A stretch of 39,671 nucleotides of DNA from Lachnospiraceae bacterium. GTDB taxonomy: Bacteria > Bacillota > Clostridia > Lachnospirales > Lachnospiraceae. Positions 1,701 to 18,667 of this stretch are shown here, one piece after another. Below the pieces are notes generated by a model. That model searched no databases and had not been told where the DNA came from. It saw only the letters and a list, made by a program, of their open reading frames with translations. The stretch spans positions 1-39,671 of the forward strand of contig JAAVAE010000022.1 of NCBI GenBank assembly GCA_014804245.1, read 5' to 3'. Position 1 is the first letter of the stretch, and the number at the start of each line of letters is the position of its first letter. The position numbers were made by a program, and so were the translations under genes.

Positions 1701-1993
1701 AAATCATCCCCCTGTTCTTCATACATCTCTTTATAAAACATAACATAATCTGTTATGATTTCCGGATAGTGATTATAAAACTTTCTGCAGACCCTTTTAA
1801 ATAAATTTAGCATTTCATCACTTATGCACACAGATACCAATCCATCTAAAACATTTTCAAGTTCTTTTTCCTCTACTGCTCTTCCGGAACAAATTTCATC
1901 CACAATAGGCTTATATACCAAAAACGCCTGCCTATTTAATTCTTTTATACTCTCTACAATAGAATCTATTTTTTCTTCTAAATTTTTTTGCAC
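1697..1993 (-). CDS. Hypothetical protein, 98 aa
   Basis: A small, probably helical acidic protein that I do not recognise. A GTG start at 1993 is chosen because a perfect AGGAGG lies 7 bases upstream (2001-2006); an ATG 24 bases further upstream has no ribosome site. The sequence starts VQKNLEEKIDSIVESIKEL, is mostly charged amphipathic helix, and ends EMYEEQGDDL. It overlaps the next gene by ATGA, so the two are likely co-translated and may act together. The context of regulators and broken Fic and AlbA_2 genes suggests accessory, possibly mobile-element DNA. Confidence 0.55.
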   Translation of the reverse strand: MQKNLEEKIDSIVESIKELNRQAFLVYKPIVDEICSGRAVEEKELENVLDGLVSVCISDEMLNLFKRVCRKFYNHYPEIITDYVMFYKEMYEEQGDDL

Positions 1994-2097
1994 AAAAAAT
2001 CCTCCTACTATCAGCATATAGTATCAAAACCACCTGCTTTTAATAAGAGGATAATATAAGATATTCACTTTGTCATTGGACGGATAGTCCAATCGCT

Positions 2098-2412
2098 TTA
2101 TGCAGCCTCCTGTAGACATTTCATGTATAGCAGAAGCCTTCTGTTTCTTGCATCGCCTGTCGCTTCAACAATGTTATCTTCTATAGATTGTCCTTTCAAA
2201 ACCACCAAGTCTTCCATGTGAACATTTAACAATCTGCTTAATGCGCATAAGTGTTCTACTGATGGTAAAATCTTACCTTTAAACCATCTATATATTGATT
2301 GAGGACATGACAAATGGAGATATTTCTGAATATCTCTTACTTCATAACCTGCTGTTCTTAACATCTCTTTTATTTTTGCACCAGTTTTAATTTGATCAAT
2401 TGATTGATACAT
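2098..2412 (-). CDS. XRE-family helix-turn-helix regulator, 104 aa
   Basis: A small DNA-binding protein with one Cro/C1-type helix-turn-helix. After an N-terminal helix (IKTGAKIKEMLRTAGYEV), the HTH reads VRDIQKYLHLSCPQSIYRWF (about residues 25-44), with a following helix containing LPSVEHLCALSRLLNV typical of the family. The C-terminal 30 residues are helical and basic. The ATG at 2412 is preceded by GGGAGG at 7 bases; an in-frame ATG six codons upstream lacks a site. It lies first in a minus-strand group with the two hypothetical genes, so it may regulate that group, but no operator could be identified. Confidence 0.75.
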   Translation of the reverse strand: MYQSIDQIKTGAKIKEMLRTAGYEVRDIQKYLHLSCPQSIYRWFKGKILPSVEHLCALSRLLNVHMEDLVVLKGQSIEDNIVEATGDARNRRLLLYMKCLQEAA

Positions 2413-2572
2413 CTGAATTCCTCCCTTCATTATTTACTATATACTTTTTCTATATTTTAATCAATTTCTATCATAAAATATTTGCTCAAAAGAAAATATA
2501 GGACATAGCAACCGCCACGCCCCACATTTCTTATCGTTCTAACAATTTTATTTTAATCATATTCTGGCAAAT

Positions 2573-2779
2573 TCAAAGAGATACGATTATATTGTTGGTG
2601 TTCCCCTCTGCCACTATATATCTTGTATCTGCAAGCATTTTAAAATACCTTCGCACTGTCGCAGCCGACTTTCCAGTAATCGTTTCAGTCTCTTTAGGCG
2701 TGATTTCTCCATGCTCTTCCATAAAGCTAACAATTGTACTTACTTTATTATAACCTTTTTTTGCTAAAACTCCGCTCAA
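2573..2779 (-). pseudogene. Winged-helix domain fragment, 68 aa
   Basis: The sequence is a lone winged helix: IVSFMEEHGEITPKETETI, then recognition helix KSAATVRRYFKMLADTRYI, then the wing. This matches the C-terminal winged-helix module that ends Fic-family and AlbA_2-family proteins, not a complete regulator. The frame begins with TTG at 2779, with GAGG a few bases upstream. An ATG at 2805 starts MSIFDLRNF and stops immediately; adding one base in the T run would join it to LSGVLAKKGYN and give a longer product. It could be a functional small regulator read from TTG, but a broken remnant in this region of broken genes is more likely. Confidence 0.5.
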
Positions 2780-2815
2780 AAATTCCTCAAATCAAATATG
2801 CTCATTTTAGAAACG

Positions 2816-3385
2816 CTAAAACAGTATTTCAGTAAGTCCGCCTACCGCCAATGCAACCACAAGACCTATCATCATTCCAAAAAAACCTTCAACAACACTT
2901 TTGCGGTTATTTGACCTATATTCCTTATCCATATATTCTGTTCCCGGCAATCTACATTTTTTCCAATTTGCAAGAATCAACATATCAAGAATAAATACAT
3001 CGAACCAATTTACAACAAACCAAATAATATAACAATTAATAAAACCGTGTATAAAGTCCCTTGCCCCGGAAATATAAACCATAAACAATAAAGCAACAAC
3101 AAACACTAAACACCCGGTAATTTTTTTCACAATAAGTCCTAATATACTTTCCTTTTTATCAGTTACTTTATATTCAGGATATAGACTAAGAAATTTTTCC
3201 TGCACAGCAGGCGCATATTCCTGTAACCAAAACATCTTATTTGCCAATACTGATCCAATAATTCCGATACCAAATATTGCACAAGCAATAATACATTCTA
3301 TAAATAATATCACCTGAAACCTCCAATTTGCTAGCTTTTGCACTGCTTTTTGAATATACCACCTGTAATCTAACTGCTTCCTCAA
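2816..3385 (-). CDS. Four-helix membrane protein, start uncertain
   Basis: A 189-residue integral membrane protein that I do not recognise. Hydrophobic segments are at about 23-48, 88-106, 113-138 and 168-188, with a soluble loop between the first two and a basic loop (RSNNRKS) before the last. The only start in this frame is TTG at 3385, without a good ribosome site. However, the fic pseudogene stop overlaps an ATG (CAATGAG) in the next frame; removing one G from GAGGAAG would give MSSFEKQLDYRWYIQ and join the ATG to this frame. A one-base insertion near the start is therefore likely, so the gene may be translated poorly or not at all. Confidence 0.5.
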   Translation of the reverse strand: MRKQLDYRWYIQKAVQKLANWRFQVILFIECIIACAIFGIGIIGSVLANKMFWLQEYAPAVQEKFLSLYPEYKVTDKKESILGLIVKKITGCLVFVVALLFMVYISGARDFIHGFINCYIIWFVVNWFDVFILDMLILANWKKCRLPGTEYMDKEYRSNNRKSVVEGFFGMMIGLVVALAVGGLTEILF

Positions 3386-3391
3386 AACTGC

Positions 3392-4014
3392 TCATTGTAC
3401 TTTCTTCGACTGTAATACTTCCCAATATCCGTTCTTACTCGCTCCATGACGGACTATTTTTTTCTGCTTTTAACTTTGACAAGATTCATTCCACCTGTCT
3501 GTCTGTCAATCCAAGCGTCGAAGCCAATGTTTTGGCGGTTAATTTGCTATCCTGCCTGAGAAGTGCCAGCACTTTTTCCTCGTTTGTTCCGACATTTACT
3601 CCGACATTTACTCCTACATCCTGTCGTTTAATTTCCGCTCCTAAAGCGCCCGGCCTCCTTAACCAAGCCCTCCATCAGGATCTTATGCGCCAACAACAGA
3701 TTTTTCACACTATACGGGTCAAGTGCTGATATTCTCTCGTATGCTTCATAAGCATTCTTTACTTCCCGGATATCCTGTGGCGGTTCGAGTACCGTTTTTC
3801 CGTTTACAACATCCGCCACCTGGTCCAAGGTCAAAGTATTTTGCTCTAGGGCAAGGGATGAATGAATGGACTTAATCCTGCTCTCGCGGCTTAATTTCGG
3901 ATTCGGCTGTAGTGCGTCATACGTTACAACCACACCAACCTGCTCACCAATTTCAATTACAAGGTTTGTAATCTCTTCCGTCATTGTAAAGGGAGGCGCA
4001 TATGTGTCGTTCAT
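3392..4014 (-). pseudogene. Fic-family protein remnant lacking its catalytic core
   Basis: Fic enzymes AMPylate or otherwise modify target proteins. The intact N-terminal 128 residues have the Fic_N-type region with an inhibitory-helix motif (SSLALEQNTLT, about 52-62; the usual EGN glycine is Gln) and continue to GLVKEAGRFRSGN. There the frame hits a stop near 3628. Directly behind it, in another frame, comes the C-terminal part: RQDVGVNVGVNVGTNEEKV and a winged helix (LTAKTLASTLGLTDRQVE). The whole HPFxxGNGR catalytic segment is therefore deleted. The C-terminal part also has a CGA-to-TGA stop (RQVE*) and an extra A in an A-run before VRHGASKNGYWEVL. It ends at TGA 3392-3394. Clearly non-functional. 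Confidence 0.85.
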
Positions 4015-12973: not shown

Positions 12974-15900
12974 TCAATCAAACGATTCAGAAGAGAGCAC
13001 TTCCTCGAACTCTTCCTCATCAAAACCTTCATCCAGATCTTCCTCTTCATCAGCACTCACAAGTTCACCGCTGTCCTCATCGAATTCCTGCTGCTGATAT
13101 CCCATGGAGCTGAGAGATTCCTTCTCGTAGTCATAATTCTTGTCATTTCCCTCAATCTCATAACGATAATCAGTATCACCATAATCAATGGTTTCCATGA
13201 TTTCAACTTCTGTGTTGTCATCACGCAGGACGCGCACATCAAGACCCAGAGACTGCAATTCTTTGAGCAATACCTTAAAGGACTCAGGAATACCCGGCTC
13301 AGGAATATTGTCGCCCTTGATGATTGCTTCATAGGTCTTTACACGTCCCACCACATCATCAGACTTCACAGTCAGAATTTCCTGAAGCGTATAGGATGCA
13401 CCATATGCCTCTAACGCCCATACTTCCATTTCTCCGAAACGCTGTCCGCCGAACTGGGCTTTACCACCTAAAGGCTGCTGGGTAACCAATGAGTAAGGAC
13501 CTGTGGAACGCGCATGGATCTTATCATCAACCAGATGATGGAGCTTTAAGTAATGCATGTGTCCTATGGTTACCGGGCTGTCAAAGTACTCACCCGTTCT
13601 GCCGTCGCGAAGTCTTACCTTACCGTCTCTGGAAATCGGAACGCCTTTCCAAAGTTCTCTGTGGTCGCGGTTTGTATATAAATATTCCATTACTTCCGGG
13701 AGAAGTTCTTCTTTATGCTTTGCTTCAAACTCTTCCCAGCTTAAGTTTACATAATCATTGGCAAGATCCAATGTATCCATGATATCATCTTCATTTGCGC
13801 CGTCGAAGACAGGAGTTGCCACGTTAAATCCAAGTGCTTTTGCTGCCAATGACAAGTGAATTTCCAATACCTGTCCAATGTTCATACGGGAAGGCACGCC
13901 CAGCGGATTCAAAACAATGTCAAGAGGGCGGCCATTCGGCAGATAAGGCATATCTTCTACCGGAAGAACACGGGAAACAACACCCTTGTTACCATGACGT
14001 CCAGCCATCTTGTCACCAACAGAAATCTTTCTCTTCTGCGCAATATAAATACGAACTGCCTGATTCACACCAGGAGAAAGTTCATCGCCATTTTCTCTCG
14101 TGAACACCTTTGCATCCACGATGATACCATACTCTCCGTGAGGTACTTTAAGGGAAGTGTCTCTTACTTCTCTTGCCTTTTCACCGAAGATTGCGCGAAG
14201 CAGTCTTTCCTCGGCGGTCAGTTCTGTTTCTCCCTTAGGAGTAACCTTACCAACCAGAATATCGCCGGCACGAACCTCAGCACCGATTCGGATAATACCT
14301 CTCTCATCCAGATCTTTTAATGCATCATCACCGACACCCGGAACATCTCTTGTAATTTCTTCCGGTCCCAACTTGGTATCTCTTGCTTCTGCCTCATATT
14401 CTTCAATGTGTACAGAAGTATATACATCCTCCTGTACCAGTCTTTCGCTCAAAAGAACTGCGTCCTCGTAATTATAACCTTCCCAGGTCATAAAACCAAT
14501 CAGCGGGTTCTTTCCTAAAGCCAGTTCTCCTTCGGAAGTGGAGGGACCGTCTGCAATCACCTGACCAGCTTCCACATGTTCACCCTTAAATACAATGGGT
14601 TTCTGATTGTAACAGTTAGACTGATTGCTTCGTGAAAATTTCGTCAGACGGAATTCCATCTTTTCACCATCATCACAACTCATCCTGATCAGCTTTGAGG
14701 AAACATAATCAATTGTACCTGCCTTTTTGGCAACCACGCAGACACCCGAATCCACAGCTGCCTTGGGTTCCATACCAGTTCCTACAACAGGTGCTTCCGT
14801 CGTAAGAAGCGGAACTGCCTGACGCTGCATGTTGGATCCCATCAGCGCACGGTTCGCATCATCATTCTCCAGGAAAGGAATGAGTGCCGTTGCCACTGAA
14901 AATACCATCTTAGGAGATACGTCCATATAATCGAACATTGCCTTAGGATATTCGGACGTCTCCTCTTTATAACGACCGGACACTGTATTTCTTACAAAAT
15001 GCCCTTGTTCATCCAGTGCCTCATTTGCCTGTGCCACATGATAGTTATCTTCTTCGTCTGCCGTCATGTAAACCACTTCATCTGTAACCTTGGGATTTAC
15101 CGGGTCAGTTTTATCTATTTTACGATAAGGTGCTTCTACAAAACCATATTCATTAATCCTTGCATAGGAAGCAAGTGAGTTGATCAGACCGATGTTGGGT
15201 CCTTCAGGCGTCTCAATAGGACACATTCTTCCATAGTGAGAGTAGTGAACGTCACGTACCTCAAATCCGGCACGGTCTCTGGAAAGACCACCGGGACCTA
15301 ATGCCGAAAGACGTCTCTTATGCGTCAATTCACCCAATGGATTGTTCTGATCCATAAACTGGGACAACTGGGAGGAACCGAAAAATTCCTTCACCGCAGC
15401 CTGTACCGGTTTAATATTGATGAGTACCTGCGGAGATATTTCTTCCGCGTCATGAGTGGTCATTCTCTCACGGACAACTCTTTCCAATCTGGAAAGACCT
15501 ATTCTATACTGGTTCTGCAGCAGCTCGCCTACCGCACGAATACGTCTGTTGCCCAAATGATCGATATCATCGTCATTGCCAATCCCATATTCAAGATGAA
15601 TATTGTAATTGATGGATGCCAGAATATCTTCCTTTGTGATATGTTTAGGAATCAATTCATGTACATTCTTTTTAATAGCATCTGCAAGCGCCTCCGGATC
15701 CTCGCTGAACTCTTCAAGAATCTGTGCAAGCACCGGATAATAAACATGTTCTGTGATGCCCAGTTCTCTGGGATTACACTCAACAAAGTTGGTGATGTCT
15801 ACCATCATATTAGAAATAATCTTTACATTTCTTTCTTCTGTCTGAATGTACACATATGGAATTGCTGCATTCTGAATCTGATCTGCCAGTTCAGCAGTCA

Positions 15901-16840
15901 CTTTGGTACCTGCTGCTGCCAGCACCTCACCCGTAAGTGTGTCTACCACATCCTCAGCCAGGACATGGTGTCTGATCCTGTTTCTGAATGCGAGCTTTTT
16001 ATTGAATTTATATCTGCCTACTTTCGCCAAATCATATCTTCTGGGGTCGAAGAACATTGCATTAATAAGGCTTTCTGCACTTTCAACGCTTAAAGGTTCA
16101 CCGGGGCGGATTTTTTTGTACAACTCTAAAAGACCTTCCTGATAATTCGTAGAAACGTCTTTGGAAAAGCTGGCTTCAATCTTAGGTTCATCTCCGAACA
16201 GTTCCCTGATCTCATCATTCGTGCCTACGCCAAGCGCTCTTATGAGAACAGTAATCGGAACCTTTCTGGTTCTGTCAACACGTACATAAAAAATATCATT
16301 GGAATCCGTTTCGTATTCAAGCCACGCGCCGCGGTTAGGAATAACCGTAGAGGAAAATAACCTCTTACCAATCTTATCATGACTGATTGCATAATAAATG
16401 CCTGGGGAACGAACCAACTGACTTACGATAACACGTTCAGCTCCATTAATAACAAATGTACCAGTCTCCGTCATCAGCGGAAGATCTCCCATGAAGATCT
16501 CATGTTCACTGATTTCTTCTTTCTCCTTATTATAGAGACGTACCTTGACCTTCAGGGGAGCTGCATAGGTTGCATCCCGCTCCTTACATTTTTCGATGGA
16601 ATATTTCACTTCGTCTTCACACAGTTCAAAATCCACGAACTCAAGACTTAAATGACCGCTGTAATCCGCAATCGGTGAAATATCATCAAATACTTCCTTA
16701 AGGCCTTCTTCCAGAAACCACTTGTAGGAATCCTTCTGAACCTCAATCAGGTTCGGCATCTCCAGAACCTCTTTCTGCCGTGAATAACTCATACGCATGT
16801 TCTTGCCTGCGGCAATGGAACGTATCCTGTTCTTTTCCAT
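12974..16840 (-). CDS. rpoB: RNA polymerase subunit beta
   Basis: Beta (1288 aa) forms the other jaw of the RNA polymerase catalytic core. The rifampicin region [25 protein letters not shown] is present in wild-type form, written here in two adjacent segments: [13 protein letters not shown] and [12 protein letters not shown]. The active-site segments [11 protein letters not shown] and [24 protein letters not shown] are intact. The protein ends with an acidic tail ([18 protein letters not shown]), as in its partner beta'. It is transcribed from its own promoter 83 bp upstream of the ATG, behind a terminator that closes the rplJL unit, so rpoBC is not forced to follow ribosomal protein transcription. 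Confidence 0.98.
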
Positions 16841-16951: not shown

Positions 16952-17018
16952 GAAACATTTTTCCGTTTTGGAAAATTTTTGAAAAAAGAGTTACTTTTTA
17001 CACTATGACCAGCGTGAC

Positions 17019-17156
17019 GCTCTGAGAGGATAAATAATCCAACGTCGCCGCGCTCCCGCTCCGCAAAAAGCGTAGCAGACGCTAGACTCGAAAAAACCTC
17101 GTCAAGCGCTGACGCTTTTTGAGGGGCTCCTTATGGATTATTTATCCTCTCAGAGC
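17019..17156 (+). repeat. Structured 138-bp repeat, copy 1
   Basis: The element has two perfect 22-bp inverted arms (17019-17040 and 17135-17156) around a 94-bp interior. Inside, CAAAAAGCGT (17064-17073) pairs with ACGCTTTTTG (17112-17121), and smaller stems nest within. The interior is very similar to that of copy 2 in the opposite orientation. Arms differ from copy 2 at 8 of 22 positions, with both strands of the stem changed together. No reading frame fits. It may be a miniature mobile element, or a structured RNA or cruciform element. The 639-bp gap between rpoB and rplL holds only these repeats, a promoter and a terminator. Confidence 0.85.
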
Positions 17157-17228
17157 TGTGTTTCGGCTGCCTGGTGAATAATAGTGAACATTATGTTACA
17201 CTTACTTTGCAGGCTAGCCGATAACGTA

Positions 17229-17366
17229 GCACAGGACAGGTAAATATTCCATAAGGAGTCCCTGTAAAAACGTCAGCGCTTGGCGAGGTTCCTCACGAGC
17301 CTAGCGTCTGCTACGTTTTTACGGAGCGGGAGCGCGACGACGTTGGAATATTTACCTGTCCTGTGC
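17229..17366 (-). repeat. Structured 138-bp repeat, copy 2 (inverted)
   Basis: Same design as copy 1 on the other strand: perfect 22-bp arms (17229-17250 and 17345-17366), a 94-bp interior and inner stem GTAAAAACGT / ACGTTTTTAC (17264-17273 with 17313-17322). The arm sequence differs from copy 1, sharing mainly the TAAATAnTCC end. A 72-bp spacer separates the copies. Because they are inverted, the pair could also fold onto each other. Confidence 0.85.
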
Positions 17367-17393
17367 GGACTCCTTGACTCCCCCATGAAAAGT

Positions 17394-17435
17394 AAAAAAC
17401 AGACTATGCACTGCTTAATGCAAATGCACAGCCTG
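17394..17435 (-). terminator. Terminator downstream of rplL
   Basis: Minus strand: CAGGCTGTGCA pairs with TGCATAGTCTG (11 pairs, two G-U in RNA), then TTTTTT. It begins about 45 bp after the rplL stop. Confidence 0.8.
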
Positions 17436-17479
17436 TCTATATGATTTTAAGTAAGATCGTTCCGATTACTCCGAAGCAA

Positions 17480-18487: not shown

Positions 18488-18661
18488 TTTCTTTACCTCC
18501 TGTTAGATTTTGGTGCCGATAGGAGTTAAAAATGCCCTTCCAAAGACGGAAGGGCAGAATCTGTCATGCATAAACTCTTCTCCTCGGTAGGCGGTACGCT
18601 TACGCCCTCATATGTACAAGACATTTCGGGCACCTACTGTCTTCGGCATGGTCAAATGACC
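18488..18661 (-). ncRNA. Ribosomal protein L10 leader
   Basis: The 5' leader of rplJL. On the minus strand it shows the conserved strings of the firmicute L10 leader: CCGAAGACAGTAGGTG near the 5' end and CCTACCGAGG later, which pair to form the kink-turn region bound by L10(L12)4. An attenuator hairpin follows, then the rplJ ribosome site. Confidence 0.85.
18528..18555 (-). terminator. Attenuator in the L10 leader
   Basis: Perfect stem GCCCTTCC / GGAAGGGC (18548-18555 with 18534-18541), 6-base loop, followed on the minus strand by ATTTTT. It lies between the L10 leader core and rplJ, so it can stop transcription before the gene. Confidence 0.85.
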
Positions 18662-18667
18662 TTTTCT

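What the first reader, a model, noticed from the sequence alone, without database searches (positions are those of the whole stretch)
17019..17366. Twin 138-bp structured elements with covarying arms between rplL and rpoB
Two copies in opposite orientation, each with 22-bp perfect inverted arms and a 94-bp interior. The interiors are nearly the same, but the arms differ at 8 of 22 positions and each change is matched on the other arm. The inner stem also differs in a compensated way (CAAAAAGCGT/ACGCTTTTTG against GTAAAAACGT/ACGTTTTTAC). Compensated change means the fold is kept while the sequence drifts. That fits a structured RNA, a cruciform, or a miniature element whose ends must pair. Their position in the rplL-rpoB gap could affect read-through or mRNA processing. 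I do not recognise the family.
Basis: seen in the sequence. Interest (0 to 1): 0.72.

Follow-up and report, generated by a model that had tools for sequence, protein, structure and literature searches.

The report
Mobile folded hairpin pair, gut bacteria
The twin hairpins are one 407-bp mobile DNA element that landed between a ribosomal-protein gene and an RNA-polymerase gene, and they belong to an unnamed group of mobile folded elements in gut Lachnospiraceae whose paired arms change together, so the fold survives while the sequence drifts.

Summary
The twin hairpins are two halves of one 407-bp non-autonomous transposon (window 16990-17396) inserted against an attenuator-like hairpin after rplL; relative G020 has the empty site. 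In all 20 twin sites among 40 sites fetched from this genome one A and one B hairpin are paired, so the arm difference is an old subtype difference, not local drift. Terminal repeats GTTACTNTTCAY and an 8-bp target duplication (37 sites, z 9.7) make it MITE-like. A covariance model finds relatives in 26 of 37 genomes of the genus and 99 of 299 of the family, with two marginal hits outside it; Rfam gave no match. 48 of 51 pairs show double-sided change. GNRA-type loops and a modest G-T over A-C excess point to one folding strand. Sister copies often differ by complete double substitutions (92 of 211 single-column differences), suggesting arm-to-arm copying plus selection for the fold. The tip hairpin also occurs alone and in arrays. 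At least two kinds of ends carry the core. No transposase partner was found and the core's function is unproven. New variant of a known kind.

The parts
16982..16989 (.). left copy of the presumed 8-bp target duplication (AAAAAAGA)
   Evidence: 7 of 8 identical to 17396-17403 (right end read one base earlier), 4 of 8 with 17397-17404; poly-A makes this site ambiguous. Empty site in G020
16990..17002 (+). left terminal inverted repeat GTTACTTTTTACA
   Evidence: consensus of sister copies GTTACTTTTCACA
17019..17156 (-). hairpin A; conserved (S) strand is minus; arms 17019-17041 and 17134-17156, P4 GNRA-type mini hairpin and tip hairpin inside
   Evidence: R1 match, E 2.1e-31
17157..17228 (.). 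72-bp spacer between the halves; 64-72 bp in 18 of the 20 twin sites fetched from this genome (others 22 and 134)
17229..17366 (+). hairpin B; conserved (S) strand is plus; arms 17229-17251 and 17344-17366
   Evidence: R1 match, E 1.5e-32
17384..17396 (-). right terminal inverted repeat (reads TTTACTTTTCATG on minus; sister consensus GTTACTTTTCAY)
17396..17403 (.). right copy of the presumed target duplication (AAAACAGA)
   Evidence: overlaps the end of the attenuator-like U run
17397..17438 (-). attenuator-like hairpin with T run just after rplL; host DNA, not part of the element; the element abuts it
   Evidence: z -5.8; conserved in alignment with relatives; the simple terminator scan did not list it

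Best explanation
The feature is one dimeric, non-autonomous DNA transposon (MITE-like). Shown: terminal repeats, 8-bp target duplications in sister copies, an empty site in a close relative, many copies per genome. Inferred: a DDE-type transposase acting in trans on GTTACTNTTCAY ends moves it. Inside each half sits a conserved folded core (variable outer stem P1, short P2, long inner stem P3 with a conserved tip, GNRA-type mini hairpin P4) that recurs across Lachnospiraceae. Shown: strong covariation, one strand favoured by loop type and G-T pairs. Inferred: the S strand folds as RNA or as single-stranded DNA and that fold is selected. Inferred: the arms are kept complementary largely by copying one arm from the other (template switching at the hairpin during replication), with selection keeping the fold and the non-paired core.
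For: Terminal repeats and alignment of 27 twin copies; 8-bp duplication mean identity 0.514 vs 0.255 shuffled, z 9.7, 8 perfect of 37 sites, other lengths 4-12 at most z 3.9; clean examples by eye. Empty site in G020, gap 214 vs 639 bp; no copy in 29 relatives' loci. Copy numbers at E<=1e-5: G319 118, G103 44, G230 34, G163 32. Covariation score 0.819 vs 0.218 (sd 0.007) shuffled and 0.11-0.13 slid. P1 arms of 204 elements: 4197 of 4483 cells Watson-Crick. Copies of one genome that differ at one arm column: 92 of 211 pairs are complete double changes. Loop GC-GNNA-GC obeys GNRA in 198 of 199. G-T over A-C on the S strand: P1 40:18, all columns 18:7 p 0.04. Template switching as a source of compensatory change is proposed in PMC8794818 (passages seen).
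Against: No autonomous partner found. Only 37 of 88 sites kept two recognisable ends; at the window itself the duplication is 7 of 8 at best. Single-sided differences are also common (114 of 211; in G163 51 single to 19 double, G020 131 to 99), so two-step compensation is not excluded, and copy pairs are not independent. The core is not seen inverted in neighbouring pairs (34 of 35 keep one orientation), which frequent template switching across the whole core would not predict. The P3 and P4 G-T excess came mostly from single columns; without them P3 is 14:8 and P4 4:1. No transcription data.
Confidence: 0.72

Rival explanations
1. The core is a structured RNA (trans-acting or a selfish RNA module) that rides in several unrelated transposons; the transposon is only the vehicle.
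For: Cores lie in elements with different ends: GTTACTNTTCAY with 8-bp duplication, and in G319 ACGGAAATCAATTTTCAG with a 9-bp duplication (two examples by eye, one 9/9, one 8/9). Tip hairpin alone or in arrays: 41 outside against 51 inside full matches, 56 of 299 family genomes against 0 of 281 outside the family. GNRA loops. Tip-only hairpins lie sense to co-directional genes 16 to 4, p 0.01.
Against: Full elements show no strand preference (17:17); no promoter above chance in the element; no transcript data; array tips are not independent.
Confidence: 0.3
2. Pure compensatory selection on an RNA stem: mutations in one arm are followed by matching mutations in the other.
For: 48 of 51 pairs with double-sided changes; G-T modestly over A-C; arms at one orthologous site in G005 and G007 after an acetokinase-family gene largely replaced yet paired.
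Against: G-T pairs are only 73 of 4483 arm cells; complete double changes are nearly as frequent as single ones even at one changed column; arms run as near-perfect Watson-Crick palindromes for about 60 bp in some G319 copies.
Confidence: 0.3
3. A cis-acting element of the rplL-rpoB operon (attenuation, RNA processing).
For: It abuts an attenuator-like hairpin and forms a very stable fold.
Against: No copy in 29 relatives' loci; sister copies at unrelated sites; no strand preference.
Confidence: 0.04
4. A single-stranded-DNA hairpin element of the REP/REPIN or IS200/IS605 kind moved by an HUH (Y1) enzyme.
For: Head-to-head dimers of imperfect hairpins and a spacer, as described for REPs (PMC3733652, passages); conserved folding of one strand.
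Against: 138-bp hairpins against 20-40 bp REPs; terminal inverted repeats with 8-bp duplication, which HUH systems do not make (general knowledge); no recurring neighbour gene in 97 loci.
Confidence: 0.06

Closest known systems
Bacterial MITEs, e.g. MITEAba12 (PMC6382973, passages seen)
   Same: Short, non-coding, terminal inverted repeats, target duplications, many copies
   Different: MITEAba12 is 111-114 bp with weak predicted structure and a co-resident IS partner; here a conserved, covarying core of 138 bp per half, dimers, and no partner found
REP / REPIN elements (PMC3733652 passages; PMC3116915 search listing only)
   Same: Palindromic, intergenic, often head-to-head dimers with a spacer
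   Different: REPs are 20-40 bp with GTAG or CGTC tags; these are far larger and have terminal repeats and 8-bp duplications
bcr1-bcr18 repeats of Bacillus cereus (PMC6542083 passages)
   Same: 100-400 bp repeats confined to one bacterial group, up to 130 copies, mobile features
   Different: Proposed TTTAT site-specific mechanism; not compared by sequence here
Structured-RNA candidates of Clostridiales (Clostridiales-1, PMC2864571; human microbiome set PMC8040213; passages seen)
   Same: Covarying folds in the same host group
   Different: No Rfam model matched; supplements of PMC8040213 could not be searched, so an unnamed entry there may overlap
L10 leader (RF00557)
   Same: Structured RNA in the same operon
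   Different: Separate feature at 18519-18664 minus

Membership tests
MITE (non-autonomous DDE transposon) | terminal inverted repeats | tested here: met
   Alignment of 27 twin copies; pattern enriched in G163 229 vs 21 backwards control; in G000 20 vs 10; in G020 29 vs 29, no enrichment
MITE (non-autonomous DDE transposon) | target duplication of fixed length | tested here: met
   8 bp, z 9.7, 0 of 2000 shuffles, 37 of 88 sites usable
MITE (non-autonomous DDE transposon) | insertion polymorphism / empty site | tested here: met
   One locus: G020 lacks it
MITE (non-autonomous DDE transposon) | autonomous element with matching ends | tested here: inconclusive
   None in the loci held; whole genomes were not scanned for it
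REP/REPIN | 20-40 bp palindrome with GTAG or CGTC tag | tested here: not met
   Units are 138 bp; tag position was not tested separately
REP/REPIN | linked RAYT gene | tested here: inconclusive
   No recurring neighbour in 97 loci by all-against-all BLAST; Y1 genes were not searched by model
Rfam families | score above a curated model threshold | tested here: not met
   Window at gathering; 7 and 8 loci at E-value: matches over elements only below threshold
cis-acting mRNA element | fixed strand relative to the gene | tested here: not met
   Full elements 17 sense, 17 antisense; tip-only 16 to 4 differs

The most novel reading that the evidence does not exclude
A Lachnospiraceae-wide structured nucleic-acid module (folded S strand with GNRA mini hairpin and a conserved tip that also lives alone and in arrays) has been captured by at least two kinds of transposon ends and spread by them, while its arms are rewritten as matched pairs by template switching: a mobile RNA-like module whose helices evolve by copying rather than by slow two-step compensation.
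Probability: 0.3. Interest if true: 0.82.

Novelty: new variant of a known kind. Interest (0 to 1): 0.6.

Why it matters
If right, a third of the Lachnospiraceae genera sampled carry an unannotated mobile folded element, in some genomes in more than 100 copies. It gives a natural data set for an open question in RNA evolution, whether matched base-pair changes arise in one step, because many young sister copies with different but complementary arms sit in single genomes. It also marks sites where genome annotation and RNA-family surveys of gut bacteria may mistake mobile DNA for regulatory RNA.

Tried and rejected
Rfam: no family. Plasmid and phage collections: no match with the 402-bp query. 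Recurrent neighbour gene: none beyond common families such as ABC transporters and response regulators. Autonomous partner: pattern scan of G163 and G020 and inspection of 30 loci, and inverted end pairs 0.7-4 kb apart in all held loci (2 pairs, enclosing a response-regulator-like and a TatD-like reading frame as judged by eye, no transposase). The DDE transposase in L145 sits inside a B hairpin as a separate insertion, not as partner. First gene-context count used longest-ORF gene calls that mislabelled the window's own genes, so its context and strand counts were dropped and replaced; only its neighbour-pair orientation count is used. In one search the P3 and P4 ratios were driven by three column pairs; one search sets them aside. 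Paper searches for end or tip letters and for Lachnospiraceae repeats listed nothing on this element; no bioRxiv and most subscription papers are not held, so this is no proof that it is unpublished.

Rows dropped before counts: one search used 207 unique of 208 elements, then 204 with at least 16 of 22 arm pairs; these came from 62 of 84 rows, 66 of 66 rows, full-length BLAST hits in L091-L144 and 9 further genus loci. One search kept all 84 rows of A3 (75 distinct), including 8 weak opposite-strand matches; and one search left those 8 out (68 distinct rows). A3 was fitted to the model structure, so it leans towards it. One search used 53 of 72 rows (13 weak or opposite-strand, 6 cut or partial left out).

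Full report
Check of the observation. The two hairpins lie at 17019-17156 and 17229-17366 with 23/23 complementary arms. Each strand folds far better than shuffles (z -9.0 to -11.0). A and B arms differ at 8 of 22 positions with matched changes. The neighbours are confirmed by Pfam as RNA polymerase beta subunit (12974-16840 minus), ribosomal protein L7/L12 (17480-17917 minus) and L10 (17936-18487 minus), with an L10 leader at 18519-18664.

What it is. The own genome (G000, draft, 59 contigs) carries many relatives: 98 and 65 BLAST matches with the A and B queries, counting arm matches and both strands, and 64 covariance-model matches. Of 40 sites fetched, 20 are twins and 20 single (5 A, 15 B); every twin is one A and one B, 18 of 20 with a 64-72 bp spacer. 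Aligning 27 twin copies from G000 and the relative G020 shows conserved ends GTTACTTTTCACA and TGTGAAAAGTAAC, beyond which the flanks differ. In the window the element is 16990-17396.

Mobility. The rplL-rpoB gap is 639 bp in G000 and 214 bp in G020, whose rpoB 5' piece is 98.5% identical; the G020 gap reads straight across the insertion point. The model finds no copy in the loci of the 29 other relatives examined (gap length measured in 27 of them). Across 37 of 88 sites in four genomes where both ends could be placed, flanks match at 8 bp (0.514 vs 0.255, z 9.7; 8 perfect), with other lengths weak or flat. Clean examples include L332 TAATGATC and L350 CCAACCTG, L282 CCCTCTTA and L295 GCTTTCTC. 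At the window the duplication is 7 of 8 if the right end is read one base earlier, 4 of 8 otherwise, in a poly-A stretch. The insertion abuts an attenuator-like hairpin after rplL; the simple terminator scan did not list that hairpin.

Family. Model R1, built from 23 genus sequences, matches 26 of 37 genus genomes, 99 of 299 family genomes and 23 of 246 order genomes, of which 21 are in the same family and 2 (family f5) are marginal at E 5e-6 and 1e-5. Copy numbers reach 118 (G319). Rfam gave no match above threshold.

Anatomy of the folded strand. S is minus for A and plus for B. P1 is the variable outer stem; P2 is short and covaries (GCC/GGC, GTC/GAC, GAC/GTC among others); P3 is long with a conserved tip CTTARCGAGG...CGARYTTAG; P4 is a mini hairpin GC-GNRA-GC. 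Of 199 elements with GCGNNAGC there, 198 obey GNRA, with all four bases at the second position; 8 of 207 lack the pattern. On alignment A3 48 of 51 pairs have double-sided changes, 95.9% of cells pair, covariation 0.819 against 0.218 (sd 0.007) shuffled and 0.11-0.13 slid; A3 is fitted to the structure and its rows are related. The MAFFT alignment A2, not fitted, gives 39 of 51 pairs with double-sided change.

How arms stay paired. In 204 elements from 54 genomes, 4197 of 4483 arm cells are Watson-Crick, 73 G-T, 46 A-C, 167 other. Between copies of one genome that differ in exactly one arm column, 92 of 211 pairs are complete double changes, 114 single-sided, 5 double but unpaired. For 1-4 changed columns G103 shows 371 double to 79 single, G000 387 to 320, G020 99 to 131, G163 19 to 51, G319 17 to 4. 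These pairs are not independent. Slow two-step compensation would leave many more single-sided states at such small distances; copying one arm from the other explains the excess, as proposed for RNA genes in PMC8794818 (passages). In G319 some arms are near-perfect palindromes for about 60 bp. At an orthologous site after an acetokinase-family gene in G005 and G007 the core is conserved while the outer arms are largely different yet paired. Against frequent whole-core switching, 34 of 35 neighbouring pairs keep the same relative orientation.

RNA or DNA. G-T exceeds A-C on the S strand in P1 (40:18) and P2 (15:2); P3 (14:8) and P4 (4:1) are not significant once three dominating columns are set aside; over columns 18:7, p 0.04. 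GNRA loops fit RNA, but G-T pairs and GNNA loops are tolerated in single-stranded DNA too (general knowledge). Full elements show no strand preference against co-directional genes (17:17), while tip-only hairpins are sense 16 to 4 (p 0.01, arrays not independent); none of 53 full or 46 tip-only copies lies inside a called gene. No promoter above chance was found in the region.

Carriers. GTTACTNTTCAY ends occur in g1, g68 and g128. G319 has other ends: ACGGAAATCAATTTTCAG with a 9-bp duplication (L261 9/9, L264 8/9, by eye), and others whose duplications were not determined. The tip alone occurs in 56 of 299 family genomes (1 match for the backwards control) and in 6 of 291 class genomes, all six of the family, 0 of 281 outside. 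So the core is more widely spread than any one set of ends.

Verdict. A MITE-like dimeric transposon with a conserved folded core: new variant of a known kind, ordinary in how it moves, unusual in its core and in how its arms evolve. Partner transposase and core function remain open.

Noticed in passing
L145 (G020:C23) 1977-3326: A DDE_Tnp_1 transposase gene lies within a split B hairpin (fragments 1839-1895 and 3481-3571), apparently an IS inserted into the element with about 11 bp of overlap.
   Followed up: partly
L302 (G049) 2075-2541: The same rplL-rpoB gap in G049 (825 bp) holds a different set of nested inverted repeats; G046 also has a long gap (676 bp). The gap may be a recurrent landing site.
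   Followed up: partly
L398 1930-2090; L356 6106-6223; L395 1545-1663: Tandem arrays of tip-only hairpins, in L398 between what look like ribosomal-protein genes.
   Followed up: partly
L142 (G020:C27) 800-1520: Two deletion derivatives of the twin element lie on either side of what looks like a tRNA-Leu gene.
   Followed up: no
L332 (G163:C6) 1501-1744: An element whose core loop carries an extra nested hairpin, flanked by a perfect 8-bp duplication.
   Followed up: no
G163 genome: GTTACWKTTCAYRG occurs 229 times against 21 for the backwards control, many more than full hairpins (32), with short inverted pairs down to about 50 bp: a large MITE population.
   Followed up: partly
G000 genome: Completeness is given as 59.7% although the draft has 2.93 Mb; several contigs end inside these elements, as expected of repeats.
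   Followed up: no
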